In this document: piece after piece, positions 40,464 to 57,139 of the stretch
Position numbering within the stretch: position 1 is the stretch's first letter
How the letters are laid out: each line of letters begins with the position of its first letter
NCBI RefSeq assembly: GCF_017315725.1
Contig: NZ_JAFLRG010000001.1
Coordinates: forward strand, 3,348,001-3,412,000
DNA from: Trinickia acidisoli
Lineage (GTDB): Bacteria > Pseudomonadota > Gammaproteobacteria > Burkholderiales > Burkholderiaceae
Length of the DNA: 64,000 bases
Reading direction: 5' to 3'
Program-made: the position numbers and the translations under genes
The notes under the pieces: model-generated
What the model saw: the letters and a program-made list of their open reading frames with translations, nothing else
What the model was told of the DNA's origin: nothing
Database searches by the model: none

Positions 40464-40540
<77 letters not shown>

Positions 40541-40551
40541 AATCTTCGCAG

Positions 40552-40583
40552 AGGCCCGTGTTCTCAGGAACACGGGCCTTTTG
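40552..40583 (+). terminator. Terminator after tRNA-Met supplied by the island
   Basis: A perfect 12-bp stem (40552-40563 with 40568-40579) with loop TCAG ends in a short T run. It lies 11 bases beyond the attL core, so it belongs to the island and replaces the chromosomal tRNA terminator that now lies at 53252-53284. Confidence 0.88.
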
Positions 40584-40623
40584 TCTTGTGCGCGCGGTGA
40601 GCCACCTTGTGAGCCATCCGCGA

Positions 40624-41952
40624 ATGCACAAGCTGCCGCATCTCTACCAAAACCGTTTCGGCGTCTACTATCTCAGGCTGATCCGCGCCGGACGGGAGAC
40701 GAAGAAATCCCTGCGCACGAAGGACTATCGCCAAGCTAAGATTTGGGCTCTCGCGTTCAATCTGGAACTGGCGATGAACAAGCCGAAAGCCTCTGATTTT
40801 GACCTATCGGGCACGAATGCTCGGGAGTTCGACGTCGTGTTGCCCGACGGGACCCAAATCAAGAACATCGAAACAGCCGAGGACGTTCGGCTCGCCAAAG
40901 AGATGTTCGGCGATCGCCTGGCCGCCCCGCTCGATCTGCCGGTTTTCACGCCCGCCGTGGCCGCAGCCATTGCCGCCCAACAAGCGAATTCCGCGCCGAA
41001 AAAACGCGGCAAGCCATTCGCAGACGTCGTGAAGCTCTACGCGCGGGAAAAATCCCTCGACAACGCGCCCAGGACGATCACAGCCAAGCAAGGCGCGTTC
41101 GATGACTTCTCGGCGAGCGCTGGCGCGCGGACTATGGACGCTTACACGCTCGATGACGCCGTTTCATACAAGAACAAACTCATTGACGCAGGCGGGAGCG
41201 CCAGCCGCATAAACTCGAAGCTCTCTTACTTGCGAGACCTTTTCGCCTATGCATTGGCGAACGGCCAGCACCCCGGCCCAAACCCATTCGAAAACGCCAA
41301 GGTGTCTTCGAAGTCGAAGCTGGAACAGCAAAAGCGCTCCTACAAACCTTTCAGCGCCGACGACCTAAAAGCCATTTTTGCCCCTGACACCTACACCGCC
41401 CGAATGGACAAACCGGGCTATCGATGGCTCCCGTTCCTTGCGTTGTATTCGGGCGCGCGACTTGAAGAGCTGGCGAGCCTCGCCTTGTCGCAAATTCAAC
41501 GGGACGGGGATGTTTGGTTCTTCGAACTCGTCAAAGCAAAGAACTCGAACTCCCTGCGCCGCATCCCCCTGCACCGGACGGTAGTCGAATCTGGTTTTCT
41601 GGCCTACGTCGAAAAAGCGAGGGCCAGTGGCGCTACGCAACTGTTCCCCGAACTGAAACCGGGCAAAAACGGCTATGGAAAGAATGTCACCAGGCGCTTC
41701 GGCGACTATTTGGACGAGATCGGCATAACGGACGACCGCAAGGTTTTCCACAGCTTCCGGCACACGTTCATCGCGCGCATGAGCGCGCGCAACGTCCATC
41801 CCGCCATGCTCATGGCCTTGGTTGGCCACTACGATCAGGCCAAAGTTGATTTCAGCAGTCCGCACTTCACGAATTACCAACACGACAAGCCGCTCGCTGA
41901 GCTCAAAGAGACAATTGATCTTTTCGACGTGGCGTTGCCGCAGAAATTTTGA
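40624..41952 (+). CDS. Tyrosine-type site-specific integrase of the island
   Basis: The 442-residue recombinase has an N-terminal arm-binding region (LYQNRFGVYYLRLIRAGRETKKSLRTKDYRQAK), a SAM-like core-binding domain (about 130-225) and a catalytic domain with Arg279 (SGARLEEL), His376 and Arg379 (VFHSFRHTF), His402 (VGHYD) and Tyr418, the full set. The frame is open back to 40558 but that part includes the tRNA terminator hairpin, so the ATG at 40624 is chosen. Position and completeness make it the likely enzyme that integrated the element at tRNA-Met. Confidence 0.92.
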   Translation: MHKLPHLYQNRFGVYYLRLIRAGRETKKSLRTKDYRQAKIWALAFNLELAMNKPKASDFDLSGTNAREFDVVLPDGTQIKNIETAEDVRLAKEMFGDRLAAPLDLPVFTPAVAAAIAAQQANSAPKKRGKPFADVVKLYAREKSLDNAPRTITAKQGAFDDFSASAGARTMDAYTLDDAVSYKNKLIDAGGSASRINSKLSYLRDLFAYALANGQHPGPNPFENAKVSSKSKLEQQKRSYKPFSADDLKAIFAPDTYTARMDKPGYRWLPFLALYSGARLEELASLALSQIQRDGDVWFFELVKAKNSNSLRRIPLHRTVVESGFLAYVEKARASGATQLFPELKPGKNGYGKNVTRRFGDYLDEIGITDDRKVFHSFRHTFIARMSARNVHPAMLMALVGHYDQAKVDFSSPHFTNYQHDKPLAELKETIDLFDVALPQKF

Positions 41953-42180: not shown

Positions 42181-42201
42181 ACGTTGTGGCCGCCAATAAC
42201 T

Positions 42202-43026
42202 ATGCAAAAAACCGCCGTCTTTGTGGACGCAGGCTATCTTTTCGCCCAAGGCTCCGCCGCGCTCTCAGCCGACCAAGCACCGGTCAAACGGGAGCTTTGC
42301 TCGCTCAACACAACTGCCGTGCTGACCCAGCTTCGAGCGCTGGCGAGCGCGACACCAACACAAGAGCTGTTGCGCATCTACTGGTATGACGGCGCAGCGG
42401 GAGCCCCCAGCGCGGAGCAATTGGCGCTCGCGAAATCCGACAACGTCAAACTTCGACTCGGCATTATCAACAACTTTGGCCAACAAAAAGGCGTTGATGC
42501 CCTAATCATCACCGACCTGATTGAATTGGCCCGCAATCACGCCATCGACGACGCAATATTGCTGTCCGGCGACGAAGACGTGCGCGCTGGCGTGTCCATC
42601 GCCCAAGCCTTTGGCGTCCGCGTCCACCTTCTCGGCATCGATTGCGCCGGAAGAACAAACCAGTCATCGGGTTTGAGCCAGGAGGCAGACACCTCCAAAT
42701 GTTGGTCAGCCGCAGACGTGGGGGCGTTTCTGACCCTCACCAACGCGCAACCCGGCGTCTTCGCCAATCATCTTGAAATCCAGCAACCGGCTGCGGCTCT
42801 CAACGCAGAGCAAGCAACGGCAGCCCTCAAAGCGTATGTTGCCGTGTTCGTCGCAGCGCTGACCCCTCACTGCGCGACAGCCTGCAAGGCGTCGCCCAAA
42901 AGTGTCATTCGGGAAGTTGACGGACTGCTGCTGGGCTTGGGCGGCAGGACGGTTGGCCGAAACTTGGAGGCGCACGAAAAGAGGCTTGTGCGCCAAGAAT
43001 TTCTGGCCATCGTCACGCGCGTCTGA
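42202..43026 (+). CDS. NYN-domain protein (putative PIN-fold ribonuclease)
   Basis: The 274-residue product opens with KTAVFVDAGYLF (Asp9), continues with KGVDALIITDLIELA (Asp99, Asp105) and LLSGDEDVRAGVSIAQAFGVRVHLLG (Asp124, Asp126), the acidic cluster of NYN (LabA/DUF88) metal-dependent RNases. The C-terminal 100 residues are an additional helical region without a known family, possibly for binding a partner or RNA. A terminator lies directly upstream, an XRE regulator gene converges from the right. NYN nucleases occur in defence and RNA-decay contexts; its role here is unknown. Confidence 0.85.
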   Translation: MQKTAVFVDAGYLFAQGSAALSADQAPVKRELCSLNTTAVLTQLRALASATPTQELLRIYWYDGAAGAPSAEQLALAKSDNVKLRLGIINNFGQQKGVDALIITDLIELARNHAIDDAILLSGDEDVRAGVSIAQAFGVRVHLLGIDCAGRTNQSSGLSQEADTSKCWSAADVGAFLTLTNAQPGVFANHLEIQQPAAALNAEQATAALKAYVAVFVAALTPHCATACKASPKSVIREVDGLLLGLGGRTVGRNLEAHEKRLVRQEFLAIVTRV

Positions 43027-46771: not shown

Positions 46772-47842
46772 ATGCTGAGCATTTCCAAGAGAATCAAGAA
46801 AAACGGCCAAACTCAATGGCAAGCGACTGTTCGCGTTGAAGGCCAAAAGAGTGTGAGCCGGACTTTCCAAACATGGGATCAAGCCCGAGAGTTCGGCGCT
46901 GGCCTCGAACGGGAGTTGTTGGCGCTTGGCGCCAAGGCGCCCGAGGCTGAGTTGCCGCCCGATTTGCTGAACGAAGACATCGGCGAAATCGTCGCCGCTT
47001 TTGCCAACAGCCCTCGCGCAAGGCCGCGTCATCGCGGCTTCGCTCCCACCGTCGTCAAACATGTGTCCGGCCGGAAGGTCAGCGATGTTCGGCCACGTTG
47101 GGTCCGTGAATACATCGAAAGGCTGCGAGAGCTGCCGTCCAAGCGCAGGACCATTTACTCTTGGAGCAGCATCTCCTCCCACTTGATCCTGATTTCTCTG
47201 GCAATCCGCTGGCGGGCCGAGGAGCTGGATGTCGCCGCGCCGCCGTTTCCCCGCTTTATGCAGCATTTTCCGGACGACCACGACCCGGCTCGCGAGCGCC
47301 GTCTGGCTCCGGAGGAAGAGCGCGCCCTCCTTGGCAGCCTCTGCCGAATGCGCAACGCCGAGGGCCGCCTCTTCTGCCTATTGATCTTGCTTGCAATCGA
47401 AACGGCCGCGCGCCTGCAAGAGCTGGTTCTGGCCGATTGGAGTGAGTTCCACTTCAGAACCGTCCGGGGAAAGGAGCGCGGTTGGTGGCTCATTCCCAAG
47501 GAACACGCCAAAACAAAAAAGGCCCGCCTCGTTCCGTTGACCGCAAGGGCTCGGAAGATTTTGCGCGCGATGCGGTGTTTGCAGCCCAATCTCGACAAGC
47601 CTGTTTTCGTCGGGCTCGGAACGCCGGGGCGCGTTTCCGACCGATTCCGCGAGCACGCCAAACGCGCCGGTCTTGTGGACTTTCGCTTTCACGACCTTCG
47701 GCATGAAGGCATCACCCGCATGGTGCTTCGCACGCCTCATGCCCCCTACAAGGTGATGCGAGCTGCCGGGCATTCATCGATGGACATGCTCAACCGATAC
47801 GCCAATCTTTTGCCCGACGATCTTTTCGATCTCGTCGATTGA
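46772..47842 (+). CDS. Second tyrosine recombinase
   Basis: The 356-residue protein is a full-length phage-type recombinase: N-terminal arm-like domain (SISKRIKKNGQTQWQATV), core-binding domain and catalytic residues Arg214 (ETAARLQELVL), His307 and Arg310 (FHDLRHEG), His334 (AGHSS) and Tyr343 (NRYAN), with a Lys-rich beta-hairpin near 248-251. It differs from the integrase at the left end and lies internally, not beside a tRNA, so it may belong to an older nested element or act as an invertase/excisionase. A strong terminator follows. Confidence 0.9.
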   Translation: MLSISKRIKKNGQTQWQATVRVEGQKSVSRTFQTWDQAREFGAGLERELLALGAKAPEAELPPDLLNEDIGEIVAAFANSPRARPRHRGFAPTVVKHVSGRKVSDVRPRWVREYIERLRELPSKRRTIYSWSSISSHLILISLAIRWRAEELDVAAPPFPRFMQHFPDDHDPARERRLAPEEERALLGSLCRMRNAEGRLFCLLILLAIETAARLQELVLADWSEFHFRTVRGKERGWWLIPKEHAKTKKARLVPLTARARKILRAMRCLQPNLDKPVFVGLGTPGRVSDRFREHAKRAGLVDFRFHDLRHEGITRMVLRTPHAPYKVMRAAGHSSMDMLNRYANLLPDDLFDLVD

Positions 47843-47938: not shown

Positions 47939-48730
47939 ATGAAAGTGGACGAAATGAAGTTCGAGGGGCCGGGCTGGGGCCGGGAGCATGTGAGCATTCG
48001 GCTGACGCCGAATCGGAAAACGCGGCTGCTGTCGCTGGCCCGCGAGCTGCCCCCGGATGCAACGCCGACCGACGCCATCGATCGATCGCTTGACCTGGCC
48101 ATCGCTTCGATCATGGCTCGCGGACGAGAAAAAGACTTCTCCGCCGACATTGACGAGCTGCGCAGCGCGCTTGTCAACATGGAGGCGCGCCTGGGCTTGG
48201 CATGCGCCCACGCGAGCCAATCAATCGCTGACTTGTCCGGCCAACTCGCCAGCGCGATGCCTCTGATCGAAGAAACAGCGGACGACGCGAGGCGAGTTCG
48301 CGAGGTTGTCGACGCCGCAACGGACGACGACGAAGGATCGGACGACGCGCAAGCCGGAGCCGCGCCATTGAGCATTCGCGATTGGATTGCGCGCGAAACG
48401 TTGCGTGTCGGAGCCTCAGCCGCCCAAACGGTGGCGCTTCGAGCCGAGTGGATGGCGACGCGCAAGACGTCGCAAAGCCTGTTGGCGATGGATTTTTCCT
48501 GCGAGTTGCTGGTCGTCGACGACAGGCGGGCCAACTCAACCGGGCCGTCGAGCCGATCGACTGCGCGCGTGAACTTGATCGCATCGGATTGCGCTCTGGC
48601 GAAGGGAGGCGCGTCCGACGTTGCCTGCCTCGTTTGCGAAAGACGCGATGCCGGGGCGTGGCTCCTCCGCTTCCACGCGCTCAACGCCCAAAGAAAAATC
48701 GGGGCGATGATCGCTTCCCTTCTCGCATGA
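47939..48730 (+). CDS. Hypothetical protein with a possible ribbon-helix-helix start
   Basis: The 263-residue cytosolic protein follows a GAGGAG ribosome site. The N-terminal segment VSIRLTPNRKTRLLSLARE (about 18-36) followed by a helix (TDAIDRSLDLAIASIMA) resembles ribbon-helix-helix DNA-binding modules of mobile elements. A long helical middle with an acidic patch (VVDAATDDDEGSDDAQ) and a Ser/Cys-containing C-terminal half follow. It sits directly behind the second recombinase, so an accessory role (directionality or repression) is conceivable. The family is not recognised. Confidence 0.65.
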   Translation: MKVDEMKFEGPGWGREHVSIRLTPNRKTRLLSLARELPPDATPTDAIDRSLDLAIASIMARGREKDFSADIDELRSALVNMEARLGLACAHASQSIADLSGQLASAMPLIEETADDARRVREVVDAATDDDEGSDDAQAGAAPLSIRDWIARETLRVGASAAQTVALRAEWMATRKTSQSLLAMDFSCELLVVDDRRANSTGPSSRSTARVNLIASDCALAKGGASDVACLVCERRDAGAWLLRFHALNAQRKIGAMIASLLA

Positions 48731-48976: not shown

Positions 48977-49708
48977 ATGACGAGTTCAGTGCCTGAAATA
49001 GACATTGCACAGCTTTTCTACGATGGAATTTGGGGCTCTGAGCATCAGAGACGACTCAATGAAATTGGGGCTGAATTAAACAAGGTCAGGCTTTACGCGA
49101 ACGAGATGGTGGTCGACGATCTGTTCTCGCAAACCGTTGTCTATTTGACTGGGAGCTCCTACTTCGCCGGCCTCGTGCCGATCGTTCAGATAGAGAGCGC
49201 GTTATTCGTCGAGAAAGAATTCAGGAACGAGTATGCGTATGCGCTTTCAGTTAGAGCCTACGCGGAGGTGGCGGGCAGGCTCCACAAAGGACTTCGGCTT
49301 TGGCGTCAATACAAGGCTGGGACAACGACCCTCGAAGAGTTGCGAGCGGGAGTCGAGCGCTTAATGGCAAAGTATCGACCAAATGAAAAAGCCGCTCGCG
49401 GAATGTTCAAGGGAGACGGCTTCAATGTCATGACTCTAGTGAAATCCTTGGAGGACAAAATTCCAGCGATTGCTAAAATTTACGACAACCTGTCGAGTTA
49501 CGTCCATGGCGGATTCGAGGAGCAGATGCTTACGAGAAAGCTATCGTGGTTTTCAGATATCAAACGTGCCCCCAATCCGATCGTCGAGTCGTATGAGGCT
49601 TTCGCCCAAGAACTTCGGGGTATAGCTTTCGATGATTTTGCCGAGTTGCTGCGAATCACCAAACCTCTCCGAGAGCGCTACGACGAAAGGCACAAAAACA
49701 CCAGCTAG
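48977..49708 (+). CDS. Hypothetical helical protein, possibly HEPN-like
   Basis: The 243-residue product is predicted to be mostly helical and cytosolic. The segment AKIYDNLSSYVHGGFEEQ (about 168-185) resembles the His-containing helix-loop of HEPN-type and DUF5677-like proteins (SxxVHG), but the paired Arg of the RNase motif is not evident. The codon use and base composition are more AT-rich than in the chromosome, fitting horizontal origin. It lies alone, 246 bases after the previous gene and 206 before the Ntn hydrolase. Function unknown. Confidence 0.65.
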   Translation: MTSSVPEIDIAQLFYDGIWGSEHQRRLNEIGAELNKVRLYANEMVVDDLFSQTVVYLTGSSYFAGLVPIVQIESALFVEKEFRNEYAYALSVRAYAEVAGRLHKGLRLWRQYKAGTTTLEELRAGVERLMAKYRPNEKAARGMFKGDGFNVMTLVKSLEDKIPAIAKIYDNLSSYVHGGFEEQMLTRKLSWFSDIKRAPNPIVESYEAFAQELRGIAFDDFAELLRITKPLRERYDERHKNTS

Positions 49709-49914: not shown

Positions 49915-50799
49915 GTGACAATAGCTGCTTGCTATCTTTCGCCTGAGGGCATAGTCTTGGGCGCCGACAGCACCGCCTCGACGGTTGGCCAAGGCGGGAT
50001 GCATTATTTCAACTTCAACCAAAAGGTGTTTGAAGTTGGGCAGGACAGCACTTTGGGCGTCGTTACGTGGGGACTGGGCAGCCTCGGCTCGCTGAGCCAT
50101 CGCACGATTCTGGCCCGAGTGGCCGATGGCTTCGTGGCCAATGCGCCAGGTTCGGTCCAGGCCGCCGCCGATGCTTTCATTGACGCATTTTGGGTGGAGT
50201 ATCAGGCGTTCGCTCCGGTCCAACGATTCAGAGCCCTCAACGCCAAACAGCCATTCGTCCCTGGCGGAAACGCCGGCAACTCGCGCACCGAGCCAGAGGA
50301 GAAGGAGTTTGGCAGTCTAAAAGCAGGCCTCGGCGTGGGCTTCTGCGTTGCTGGATATGTTCTATCGAACCGAACCCCTGCTGCGGTGAGCGTATTTTTT
50401 GATCCACTCGGGGCCACAAAGCCGGCGGGGCAGGCAATGACCCAAGAGGGATCGGCTTGGTGGGGCGTTCCCAACATCGTCGACCGACTCATTAGCGGGG
50501 CGGATGTAAACTTGAAAGGGGCAATCTTGTCCTCGGGGAAGTGGACCGGGACACAGCAGGAACTCGAGCAAGTGGTGGCGACACAATCGCTAAGAGCGGC
50601 GTCACTGCCTATCCGGGACGCGATCGATTACGTCTACTCTTGCATTCACTGCACGATCAAAGCCCTAAAATTTTCCAGCCTGCCGCAGGTTTGCGGCGGT
50701 CCCATCGAACTTGCGGTCATCACAACCGATAGAAAGTTTAGATGGGTAAGGCACAAACCATTTGATGCAGCTATCAATGACGGAGATTGCGATGACTGA
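49915..50799 (+). CDS. Proteasome-like Ntn hydrolase
   Basis: The 294-residue protein starts with GTG behind GGGGAG. Thr2 follows the initiator Met, so methionine removal would expose the N-terminal threonine nucleophile of the proteasome/HslV fold. With that Thr as residue 1, Asp17 (GIVLGADSTAS) and a Lys at 36 (FNQKVFEV, the Lys33 equivalent) complete the triad, and GVVTWGLGSLGSLSH matches the following glycine strand. It is longer than HslV (about 175) or BPH/Anbu, so extra C-terminal elements exist. No ATPase partner is nearby. The 8-base overlap with the next gene indicates coupling. Confidence 0.82.
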   Translation: MTIAACYLSPEGIVLGADSTASTVGQGGMHYFNFNQKVFEVGQDSTLGVVTWGLGSLGSLSHRTILARVADGFVANAPGSVQAAADAFIDAFWVEYQAFAPVQRFRALNAKQPFVPGGNAGNSRTEPEEKEFGSLKAGLGVGFCVAGYVLSNRTPAAVSVFFDPLGATKPAGQAMTQEGSAWWGVPNIVDRLISGADVNLKGAILSSGKWTGTQQELEQVVATQSLRAASLPIRDAIDYVYSCIHCTIKALKFSSLPQVCGGPIELAVITTDRKFRWVRHKPFDAAINDGDCDD

Positions 50800-50989
50800 T
50801 ACCACTCAAAACGGCGCCCAACCTGCCACGTCGGCGACCGTCCAACAAGCGGCTGAGCACATGCGGATTGATTTCGCGACCACAGGCGCGTTTCGCCCAC
50901 AAGACGTGCAGCTTGTGCTCGGCGACATTCGGAGTTCGGTCGTTGTCGCTGCGGTCGACCCGCTAGCAAGCTTCCAGCACAAAGATTGA
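50792..50989 (+). CDS. Small protein coupled to the Ntn hydrolase
   Basis: The ATG at 50792 lies within the last codons of the Ntn hydrolase gene with GGAG six bases upstream, giving 65 residues. The N-terminal third is Thr/Gln/Ala-rich (MTDTTQNGAQPATSATVQQA) and the rest could form one helix and two strands (DVQLVLGDIRSSVVVAAVDP). It has no signal peptide or membrane segment. Its coupling suggests a dedicated partner, substrate or inhibitor of the hydrolase; this is inference. Confidence 0.65.
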   Translation: MTDTTQNGAQPATSATVQQAAEHMRIDFATTGAFRPQDVQLVLGDIRSSVVVAAVDPLASFQHKD

Positions 50990-51180
50990 GTCCTATCAAA
51001 GAAGCGACCCCGACCGCTGCTAGGCTGAGATAGGTTGGCTCCTGTGATTTTGGGGGATCTTTGACGCCCCTCCGCGCTTGGCCCATAATCGCGCGAACCT
51101 GTGAGCAACCGATGGCGAAACGTCCGCCGCTAGGCCCAAAAGCGCCGGAGTCCTGCATTTTCGAATGAGGAGAGCCGCTC

Positions 51181-51417
51181 ATGGAAACAAGCAACGCCCC
51201 TCCCAAGTCAACGCCCGGTGTAAATGAGATGAAGTTGGAAAACCCGCTCGGCCTGGTCTTCGAGACCCCAAAATCCGAAAAGAATCTGCCGAGCGCGACC
51301 CTGTTCAGCGCAGACAGACGAGACAATGTCCCAGCCCAACGACGAGCAGAAGAAGACAACGCCGCAGTTTCCTCGTGGAGCCACGGTCCCTTCGCAATCA
51401 CCCAAATATTGGGTTAA
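51181..51417 (+). CDS. Possible small protein overlapping the SDH protease start
   Basis: A 78-codon frame has a good AGGAG ribosome site eight bases before its ATG. It overlaps the protease gene by 92 bases in another frame. The first half (NAPPKSTPGVNEMKLENPLG) is Pro/Lys-rich and polar. It may be a real leader or partner protein, or only serve to bring ribosomes to the weak protease start. Not recognised. Confidence 0.45.
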   Translation: METSNAPPKSTPGVNEMKLENPLGLVFETPKSEKNLPSATLFSADRRDNVPAQRRAEEDNAAVSSWSHGPFAITQILG

Positions 51418-52168
51418 AGAGAAGGATCGGTATCTCCGCCAGCTTTTGATCGGGGACATCGAGGCGCAAACGCAGCGCCCGCTCGTGGTGTATTTTGCCC
51501 AGCTTGACCAGCAGATCAATCACACCGACCCGGACGACCTCTCGGAAATTCTGTCTGGCGTGGCCGGCGACAGCGCGGACCTGTTCATCCAGACGCCAGG
51601 CGGGGACGTTGACGCCACCGAAAAGCTGATTGGCATTCTTCGGCAACGACTTAAGAGCTGGCGAGTGATTGTTCCCAGTTGGGCTAAATCCGCGGGGACC
51701 GTTGTTGCGCTATCGGCTGAGACCATTCTGCTCGGCGTCAACTCGGAACTCGGCCCGATCGACCCGCAGTTTCGCGGTGCCAATGGGATGAATGTCCCAT
51801 GCGAGATCCTGAGCGCAGACGAGAGCCAGCCGCACCATATCCGACAAATCGCCGGCCTTGCTGTCGCGCGCATGAGGCAGCTCGCACTCTCGATCCTCAA
51901 AAAGGGCATGATGAGCGGCAAGGATGAGACAGAAATCCAAGAGATCCTGGCTAAGATTTCCAGCACGAACGGCTACAAGTCCCATGGTGCCGTAATTGAC
52001 TTCGACGAAGCGAAGAGCCTCGGTTTGGCAGTTCAGTTTCTCTCACCTGACAACGAGCTCTGGAAACGTATTTGGCTGCTTTACTGCATGTATGACTACG
52101 ACACCAAGGCGCACGCCATCGGGAGGCTCGTGGAAGGCGGGAAGTTCAGCATCGCGCGAGCGAGATAG
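51326..52168 (+). CDS. SDH-type serine protease (ClpP/SppA fold)
   Basis: The 280-residue protein matches the SDH_sah (serine dehydrogenase proteinase) family of ClpP-fold enzymes. Visible are the oxyanion segment DLFIQTPGGDVDATEK (Gly92-93), the nucleophile Ser122 in SWAKSAGTVVALSAETILLG, the family motif NSELGPIDPQ (139-148) and a probable catalytic His220 in KSHGAVIDFDEAKSLGL. It lacks a clear signal peptide or membrane anchor, so it appears cytosolic. No AAA+ unfoldase is adjacent. It is the last gene of the Ntn hydrolase cluster on the plus strand. Confidence 0.85.
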   Translation: MSQPNDEQKKTTPQFPRGATVPSQSPKYWVKEKDRYLRQLLIGDIEAQTQRPLVVYFAQLDQQINHTDPDDLSEILSGVAGDSADLFIQTPGGDVDATEKLIGILRQRLKSWRVIVPSWAKSAGTVVALSAETILLGVNSELGPIDPQFRGANGMNVPCEILSADESQPHHIRQIAGLAVARMRQLALSILKKGMMSGKDETEIQEILAKISSTNGYKSHGAVIDFDEAKSLGLAVQFLSPDNELWKRIWLLYCMYDYDTKAHAIGRLVEGGKFSIARAR

Positions 52169-53226: not shown

Positions 53227-53243
53227 TCCCTGATTCGCCACCA
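53227..53243 (+). repeat. attR: second copy of the 17-bp tRNA-Met end
   Basis: It is identical to 40524-40540 over 17 bases and in the same orientation, followed by the native-looking tRNA terminator at 53252. The rest of the tRNA is absent upstream of it, as expected for the distal attachment site. Confidence 0.92.
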
Positions 53244-55654: not shown

Positions 55655-57139
55655 CATGTCGTTATACACAACGTCGCGGTCACGCCGAGCGGGCGAGAAA
55701 GCCTGTTTACTTTCAATGACATAGCGCGGCGCTTGTAAACTGTCGGCGGATGTCGTTTACTTTGCGCTTTTGAGCGCACGCCTTGGTCACCGAATCGACG
55801 CCCTGGACACAAACGGAATTCGAGCAACTGGACCTGGGCGACGCGCGCCTGAATAAGCGAGCGAGGCTTTTGATGGAAAGAATGTCGGCCGAGCCGACGG
55901 CCAGTGTGCCGCAGGCATGCCATGGTTGGGGCGAAACGATAGCGGCGTACCGCTTCTTCGATAACGAGAAGGTCCAATGGCATGCGATTCTGGAGCCGCA
56001 TTGGCAGCAGACGCAAAAGCGGATGCGGGCGCATCAGGTCGTGCTCTGTCTTCAAGACACCACCGAGCTTGATTTCAACGGTCAGGAGGCGGTCGGACTG
56101 GGTCCGCTGACGTATGAGGCGCAGCGCGGGATGTTCGTTCATCCGACCTATGCGGTGACGCCACAGCGCGAGCCGTTGGGCATCCTGGACGCGTGGATGT
56201 GGGCTCGCCAGAAGAAGGACGAGTCGGGAAAGCGCGGTGGCCCGAAGGAAAGTTTGCGTTGGATCGAAGGCTACGAGCGCATCGCCGAGATGGCGCCGGA
56301 TATGCCCTCGACTCGCCTGGTATATGTGGCGGACCGCGAAGCGGATCTGATGGCGTTGATGGAGCGCGCTGATGCATTGGGCAACCCGGCCGACTGGCTG
56401 GTGCGTGCCTCGCATAACCGCAGCTTGCCTGAAGGCGATAAGTTGTGGGAGCGCACGACGTGCGGCGAAGCGGTGGGCGAAATCGCCTTTACGATGGCCG
56501 CGCGCCAAGGCCTGAAAGCGCGCACGGTACGCCAGCGCCTGTGGCTTGAGCGTGTGCAGTTGCCCGCCAGCAAAGGGAAAAGCATTGCTGCAACGTGCCT
56601 GGTTGCGCGCGAGTTCGACGCGCCTGCCGGCGTCAAACCGATCGAATGGCGCTTGCTGACTAATCGTGGGGCGAGCACGCTCGATGAAGCGATCGAACTG
56701 ATCGAGTGGTATAGGGCGAGATGGGAAATCGAGATCCTGTTCAACGTTCTGAAGAACGGCTGTGAGGTCGAAGAACTGCAGTTGGGTACGATTGAACGGC
56801 TCGAACGCGCGTTGGCGCTGTTTCTGGTGGTGGCCTGGCGTGTGGCTCATTTGATGCGGCTGGGCCGAACCTGCCCCGATCTGGACGCCCATCTGTTCTT
56901 CGATCCCGATGAAATTCGCGCTGCCTACCTTCTCACGAAGACCCGTCGCACAGCGCAACCCAAACTCAACGAGGTGCTGCGCTTGATTGCTCGCCGAGGC
57001 GGATTCCTAGCACGCAAAAGCGACGGCGAACCCGGTGCGGAAACAATCTGGAAGGGACTCACTCACGTGCGCATCGCCGCAGAAACAATGCGCTTGCTAC
57101 GCGACGAAGGCGGTGACGAGTCTTATGTATAACGAGGTG
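55655..57139 (+). mobile_element. IS4/IS50-type insertion sequence, 1485 bp, complete
   Basis: Ends are imperfect inverted repeats (CATGTCGTTATACA on the left, CACCTCGTTATACA read inward from the right). The left end contains TTATACACAA, shared with the outer end of Tn5/IS50. A 9-bp direct repeat flanks the element, the duplication size of the IS50 group. It carries one transposase gene. The exact duplication suggests recent insertion. Confidence 0.92.
55783..57132 (+). CDS. IS4-family (IS50-like) transposase
   Basis: The 449-residue transposase has the DDE triad Asp92 (LCLQDTTELDF), Asp184 (YVADREADLM) and Glu317, with the IS4 signature Y-(2)-R-(3)-E-(6)-K realised as Tyr310, Arg313, Glu317, Lys324. 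An N-terminal DNA-binding region (FEQLDLGDARLNKRARLL) and the FFDNEKVQW segment match Tn5 relatives. The start is a TTG, as no ATG gives the N-terminal domain. The gene fills most of the element and appears intact, so it may be active. Its 3' end overlaps the M48 reading frame. Confidence 0.92.
   Translation: MVTESTPWTQTEFEQLDLGDARLNKRARLLMERMSAEPTASVPQACHGWGETIAAYRFFDNEKVQWHAILEPHWQQTQKRMRAHQVVLCLQDTTELDFNGQEAVGLGPLTYEAQRGMFVHPTYAVTPQREPLGILDAWMWARQKKDESGKRGGPKESLRWIEGYERIAEMAPDMPSTRLVYVADREADLMALMERADALGNPADWLVRASHNRSLPEGDKLWERTTCGEAVGEIAFTMAARQGLKARTVRQRLWLERVQLPASKGKSIAATCLVAREFDAPAGVKPIEWRLLTNRGASTLDEAIELIEWYRARWEIEILFNVLKNGCEVEELQLGTIERLERALALFLVVAWRVAHLMRLGRTCPDLDAHLFFDPDEIRAAYLLTKTRRTAQPKLNEVLRLIARRGGFLARKSDGEPGAETIWKGLTHVRIAAETMRLLRDEGGDESYV

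What the first reader, a model, noticed from the sequence alone, without database searches (positions are those of the whole stretch)
49915..52168. Two-protease cassette: proteasome-like Ntn hydrolase plus SDH/ClpP-fold protease with two small proteins
Four plus-strand genes encode an Ntn hydrolase with predicted Thr nucleophile after Met removal (Asp17 and Lys36 in place), a 65-residue protein overlapping it by eight bases, a possible 78-residue protein, and an SDH-type serine protease with Ser122 and His220. Both peptidases belong to barrel-forming folds, yet no AAA+ unfoldase is present. The setting is a tRNA-borne island beside an NYN nuclease, a possible HEPN protein and small membrane proteins, the type of place where defence or toxin-processing systems sit. 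I know of no named system with this pair. The small proteins could be substrates, adaptors or inhibitors.
Basis: partly seen in the sequence, partly recalled or inferred. Interest (0 to 1): 0.75.

Follow-up and report, generated by a model that had tools for sequence, protein, structure and literature searches.

The report
Proteasome-like protease with small partner gene
A mobile DNA island in a Burkholderia-type bacterium carries a proteasome-like protease gene with a small partner gene overlapping its end, next to a second, ClpP-like protease with its own small gene; the protease-plus-small-gene pairing recurs in distant phages and bacteria, the first genomic clue to what these orphan proteasome relatives do.

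Summary
The first protein (49915-50799) is a proteasome-like Ntn hydrolase: its predicted structure matches Anbu and 20S beta subunits (Z 18-19), and Thr1/Asp17/Lys are invariant in 21 homologues. It belongs with the uncharacterised proteasome homologues of Fuchs et al. 2021, as a sharply separate branch. The last protein (51326-52168) is an SDH/ClpP-fold protease with Ser122/His220, probably nearest to SDH proteases of ubiquitin-like 'Bub' operons. Both small genes look real: they keep coding patterns, order and overlaps in Paraburkholderia sp. BL21I4N1. All four genes ride a 12.7-kb island at tRNA-Met; the BL21I4N1 island sits at the same tRNA with a related integrase.

The 'one two-protease system' reading is weaker. 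The proteases were found adjacent only in these two related islands (one event), the Ntn gene plus its 65-aa gene occurs without SDH in a Sphingomonadaceae genome, and a conserved promoter-like site splits the cassette into two modules.

The more general finding: this proteasome-homologue family often has a small, fast-diverging gene directly 3' of the enzyme gene (19 of 28 loci against 21% of controls; supported in four clades). Fuchs et al. reported no genomic context for these proteins. Function, including defence, is inferred.

The parts
40464..40540 (+). tRNA-Met, integration target of the island
   Evidence: ARAGORN
40558..41952 (+). tyrosine integrase next to the tRNA (82% to the integrase at the same tRNA in BL21I4N1)
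   Evidence: Pfam PF00589 E 4.5e-11; tblastn
42184..43026 (+). NYN-domain nuclease, island cargo
   Evidence: Pfam PF01936 E 4.4e-11
46772..47842 (+). second tyrosine integrase (40% to one in the BL21I4N1 island)
   Evidence: Pfam PF00589 E 3.7e-14
47939..48730 (+). 263-aa protein of unknown function with a 29% relative upstream of the cassette in BL21I4N1
   Evidence: tblastn E 2e-20
48977..49708 (+).
49915..50799 (+). proteasome-like Ntn (Thr) hydrolase, GTG start, Thr1 exposed by Met removal (inferred)
   Evidence: AF2 model, Foldseek and VIA-align, invariant T2/D18/K37 and near-invariant G48
50792..50989 (+). 65-aa partner protein, overlaps Ntn by 8 bases, conserved with Ntn in L040 and L041
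51061..51089 (+). promoter-like TTGACG-17-CATAAT, preserved in L040 as TTGACT-17-CACAAT in otherwise poorly conserved DNA
51181..51417 (+). 78-aa protein overlapping the SDH start, core EMKLENPLGLVFETPKSEKNLPSAT conserved in L040
51326..52168 (+). SDH-type ClpP-fold serine protease, Ser122 and His220
   Evidence: Pfam PF01972 E 8e-18; alignment; tree
53229..53243 (+). att repeat: exact 15-base copy of the tRNA 3' end, right end of the 12.7-kb island

Best explanation
Two neighbouring protease modules are carried as cargo of a tRNA-Met integrative island. Module 1 is a self-activating, proteasome-like threonine hydrolase (Thr1 freed by methionine aminopeptidase, no propeptide) co-translated with a dedicated 65-aa protein that most likely is its cognate ligand: a regulator, adaptor or substrate that controls an enzyme with no dedicated unfoldase. 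Module 2 is a 78-aa gene overlapping an SDH/ClpP-fold serine protease gene, probably with its own promoter. Most likely the island uses these limited-proteolysis enzymes in a stress or anti-phage role. Shown: fold (predicted), catalytic residues, gene order, coding status, island structure, recurrence of the small 3' gene. Inferred: binding of small protein to enzyme, peptidase activity, biological role, and any co-operation between the modules.
For: Proteasome fold: AF2 model pLDDT 72.6, 230 PDB chains at E<=1e-3, Anbu Z 19.3 and 20S beta Z about 18.5. Catalytic T/D/K invariant in 21 homologues. Whole four-gene block conserved in order in L040 at 72/69/59/83% with codon-position patterns of coding sequence. 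Ntn plus 65-aa gene without SDH in L041 (51% and about 30%; overlap kept; alignment score above all 200 shuffles). Small ATG ORF at the 3' end of the Ntn gene in 19 of 28 family loci against 43 of 206 control genes (Fisher p 1e-6), with coding-pattern or alignment support in four clades. Promoter footprint between the modules. Island: tRNA, integrase, att repeat and a related island in BL21I4N1 at the same tRNA.
Against: No experiment. The SDH pairing rests on one island lineage. Beijerinckiaceae/Hyphomicrobiales members of the family mostly lack the small gene, so it is not obligatory. Loci in the small-gene test are not independent and some of the 19 ORFs (e.g. L031, L033, L048, L053, L059) may be chance. 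No recognised defence gene: PADLOC finds nothing in the seven proteins tested.
Confidence: 0.55

Rival explanations
1. One integrated two-protease system: the Ntn and SDH proteases act on each other's small proteins or in a relay, as in the first reader's reading.
For: All four genes kept as a block in two islands whose other cargo has diverged (int2 40%, 263-aa protein 29%, no relative of the 243-aa protein found there). The SDH protein groups with SDH proteases that end Bub (ubiquitin-like) operons (bootstrap 81, SH-aLRT 87), so a protease dedicated to a small protein partner has a precedent.
Against: Adjacency seen in only one island lineage; L041 has Ntn and the 65-aa gene with no SDH in its genome assembly; a promoter-like footprint separates the modules.
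Confidence: 0.25
2. Toxin-antitoxin-like unit: the Ntn enzyme is toxic and the fast-diverging small 3' protein is its inhibitor, stabilising phages and islands.
For: Small, fast-diverging, apparently translationally coupled partner, often on phage contigs and islands; MazF-type genes near two other Ntn loci.
Against: Beijerinckiaceae-type members persist in a conserved chromosomal context without an evident partner; gene order is enzyme first.
Confidence: 0.15
3. Connectase-like protein ligase: the Ntn enzyme joins or splits specific peptides, with the small protein as substrate (D-P-x-A motif, compare connectase's KDPGA, recalled from memory).
For: AVDPLA in the window and AVDPTA in L040; VKDPYA in the unrelated L047 partner.
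Against: No DP motif in L041, L034, L035, L037, L044, L069, L070 or L072 partners; two or three hits could be chance. Helices H1/H2, absent in connectase (PMC8665760), are present in the model.
Confidence: 0.07
4. Chance grouping of unrelated cargo genes.
For: Islands collect genes at random; SDH relatives and Ntn relatives mostly occur apart.
Against: Order, overlaps and all four reading frames are preserved while third codon positions differ at about half of sites for Ntn, the 65-aa gene and SDH.
Confidence: 0.2

Closest known systems
Proteasome-like homologues of Fuchs, Alva and Lupas 2021 (PMI/WPH and related groups; PMC8665760)
   Same: Thr1/Asp17/Lys/Gly47 core, no propeptide, no AAA+ partner, proteobacterial and phage occurrence, long variants with inserts
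   Different: The window protein with L040 and L041 (probably L042) forms its own long-branched clade and has a defined gene context; the paper reports no genomic context suggestive of function. Subfamily assignment could not be tested.
Anbu
   Same: Best structural match, Z 19.3, rmsd 3.2 over 199 residues, tied within 1 with 20S subunits
   Different: 13-16% identity, and an about 36-residue low-confidence insert (102-138)
SDH/ClpP-fold protease of Bub operons (multiubiquitin-E2-E1-DUF6527-SDH)
   Same: Nearest SDH relatives by path, 32-36% over the full length and 54% over a fragment of L004, shared N-terminal RYxRQxxIxxIE motif
   Different: No ubiquitin-like protein, E1, E2 or DUF6527 in the cassette; a Bub-type operon without SDH lies elsewhere in the same genome
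HslV/20S proteasome
   Same: Subunit fold and active site
   Different: No HslU, ARC/Mpa or alpha-type gene seen next to it

Membership tests
Proteasome-like Ntn hydrolase family | Thr1 nucleophile directly after the start codon, Asp17, Lys33-equivalent, Gly47 | tested here: met
   T2, D18, K37 invariant and G48 at least 90% in 21 homologues
Proteasome-like Ntn hydrolase family | proteasome beta fold | tested here: met
   AF2 model; Foldseek prob 1.00; VIA Z 18-19. Prediction, not a solved structure
A named Fuchs 2021 subfamily (e.g. PMI-1 to PMI-6, WPH) | clustering with the reference sequences | not testable with these tools
   reference alignments are in a Mendeley dataset that is not held
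Anbu | C-terminal helix H5 coiled coil and clustering with Anbu sequences | tested here: inconclusive
   highest Z but tied within 1 of 20S subunits; 13-16% identity
HslUV or 20S with AAA+ unfoldase | co-encoded AAA+ unfoldase | tested here: not met
   no AAA+ Pfam hit among the island proteins scanned; the rest of the genome was not searched
SDH-type ClpP-fold serine protease (PF01972) | score over the curated cut-off, catalytic Ser and His | tested here: met
   64.9 bits against 31.3; S122 and H220 invariant
Bub operon | ubiquitin-like protein, E1 and E2 in the same operon | tested here: not met
   absent from the cassette; multiubiquitin gene at C1:1721338 of the same genome, none in BL21I4N1
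Known anti-phage systems (PADLOC) | match to a system protein | tested here: not met
   no hit for seven proteins
Toxin-antitoxin pair | toxicity of one gene neutralised by the other | not testable with these tools
   needs expression experiments

The most novel reading that the evidence does not exclude
A new kind of mobile, unfoldase-free protease system in which proteasome-like enzymes found in phages and islands each act through a dedicated, fast-diverging small protein (a tag, substrate or inhibitor), here coupled with a Bub-type SDH protease into a two-protease immunity cassette.
Probability: 0.15. Interest if true: 0.85.

Novelty: new variant of a known kind. Interest (0 to 1): 0.55.

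Why it matters
Over twenty proteasome-homologue families are known from bacteria, archaea and phages with no function and, according to Fuchs et al. 2021, no telling gene context. A recurrent small gene directly behind the enzyme gene gives a concrete partner to test, and the window's variant also links such an enzyme to a protease type used in bacterial ubiquitin-like operons.

Tried and rejected
Single-sequence scans of viral contigs with the Ntn or SDH protein found nothing. Plasmid and phage collections have no Ntn match. 199 relatives, 398 genomes of the phylum and 146 of the BL21I4N1 genus gave no other close Ntn gene. The 65-aa alignment found no viral relatives, and the 78-aa protein has no plasmid match. 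The AF2 model of the 65-aa protein is low confidence, mainly two helices (pLDDT 61.8), and was not used for a fold search. The idea that the cassette is a Bub operon was rejected (no Ubl/E1/E2 here; BL21I4N1 has no multiubiquitin gene). A PHROG hit of the 65-aa protein (E 0.0036) was dropped because its L040 orthologue scores E 0.45. The primary papers on Bub enzymes were not held.

Full report
Observation. The four ORFs exist as described. Pfam, NCBIfam and PADLOC give nothing for the Ntn protein; PHROG 5990 matches weakly. The SDH protein matches PF01972 over its cut-off.

The Ntn enzyme. A small alignment seeded by PHROG 5990 members let viral and genome collections be scanned, giving 9 viral and 21 genomic loci. 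Thr directly after the start codon, Asp17 and the Lys are invariant in the 21 sequences aligned, Gly47 nearly so. The AF2 model is a proteasome beta fold, closest to Anbu and 20S beta subunits. Fuchs et al. 2021 (PMC8665760) describe 22 such orphan families, some with inserts like those of the long relatives here, and report no genomic context. The window protein, L040 (72%) and L041 (51%) form a clade on a very long branch; the fragment L042 (62%) probably belongs there.

The cassette. Paraburkholderia sp. BL21I4N1 (L040) has all four genes in the same order and overlaps. Codon-position differences show that the 65-aa gene and the non-overlapping part of the 78-aa gene evolve as coding sequence. 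Between the two halves the DNA is poorly conserved except for a TTGAC(G/T), 17-base spacer, CA(T/C)AAT pattern shared by both, suggesting a separate promoter for the 78-aa/SDH genes. In L041 the Ntn gene is followed, with overlap, by a diverged copy of the 65-aa gene (shared residues R..FA.TG..R..D....LG), then an insertion sequence; no SDH gene was found in that genome assembly.

The island. tRNA-Met at 40464-40540 is followed by an integrase; the last 15 bases of the tRNA recur exactly at 53229-53243, defining a 12.7-kb island of lower G+C than its left flank (0.59 against 0.65). In BL21I4N1 the same tRNA, an 82% integrase and the same att end bound a larger island of about 28 kb. The cassette and the first integrase are the best conserved parts; the second integrase (40%) and the 263-aa protein (29%) have diverged, and no relative of the 243-aa protein was found. 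The two occurrences are therefore one lineage, not independent evidence of association.

The small 3' gene as a family trait. Among 28 Ntn-family loci, 19 have an ATG ORF of 40-110 aa starting within 40 bases of the enzyme's stop, against 43 of 206 control genes. Coding-pattern or alignment support exists in four clades: L035/L036/L039, L034/L038, L070/L072 and window/L040/L041. The chromosomal Hyphomicrobiales/Beijerinckiaceae clade mostly lacks it. The loci are not independent, and some ORFs may be chance.

The SDH enzyme. Its nearest relatives on plasmids end Bub operons (multiubiquitin, E2, E1, DUF6527); a tree of 23 sequences puts it on their side with moderate support (81/87). Other SDH relatives sit in phages or alone. 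Of the Ntn loci, only the window and L040 have SDH beside them. The window genome has a Bub-type operon elsewhere that lacks SDH. Bub operons have not been shown to protect against phage (PMC13373217).

Judgement. Ordinary parts: the folds and the island. New: the conserved small partner of an orphan proteasome-homologue family, and its block with an SDH protease. The claim of a single two-protease system is possible but rests on one lineage. Function is inferred throughout.

Noticed in passing
L079:4234-6630 (same genome, C1:1721233-1723629): Bub-type operon: triple multiubiquitin protein, DUF6791-ThiF protein and DUF6527 protein, no SDH gene found, downstream of an IrrE-UvrD-PDDEXK fusion.
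   Followed up: partly
L045:7847-8460 and L044:8956-9117: MazF/PemK-type genes near two distant Ntn-hydrolase loci (Pfam-confirmed in L045; judged by eye in L044).
   Followed up: no
L009, L010, L019: SDH protease genes of another clade also have a 66-70 aa ORF ending at or near their start.
   Followed up: partly
L084:2884-3879: SDH-type protease in a cargo (moron-like) position between antiterminator Q and holin genes on an E. coli prophage-like plasmid.
   Followed up: no
window 51061-51089: Promoter-like site kept between two diverged islands in otherwise poorly conserved DNA.
   Followed up: yes
window 55783-57132: Tn5-type transposase just outside the island.
   Followed up: no
L047:2116 onwards, and the window's 65-aa protein: D-P-x-A motifs in small partners, reminiscent of connectase's recognition sequence; may be chance.
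   Followed up: partly
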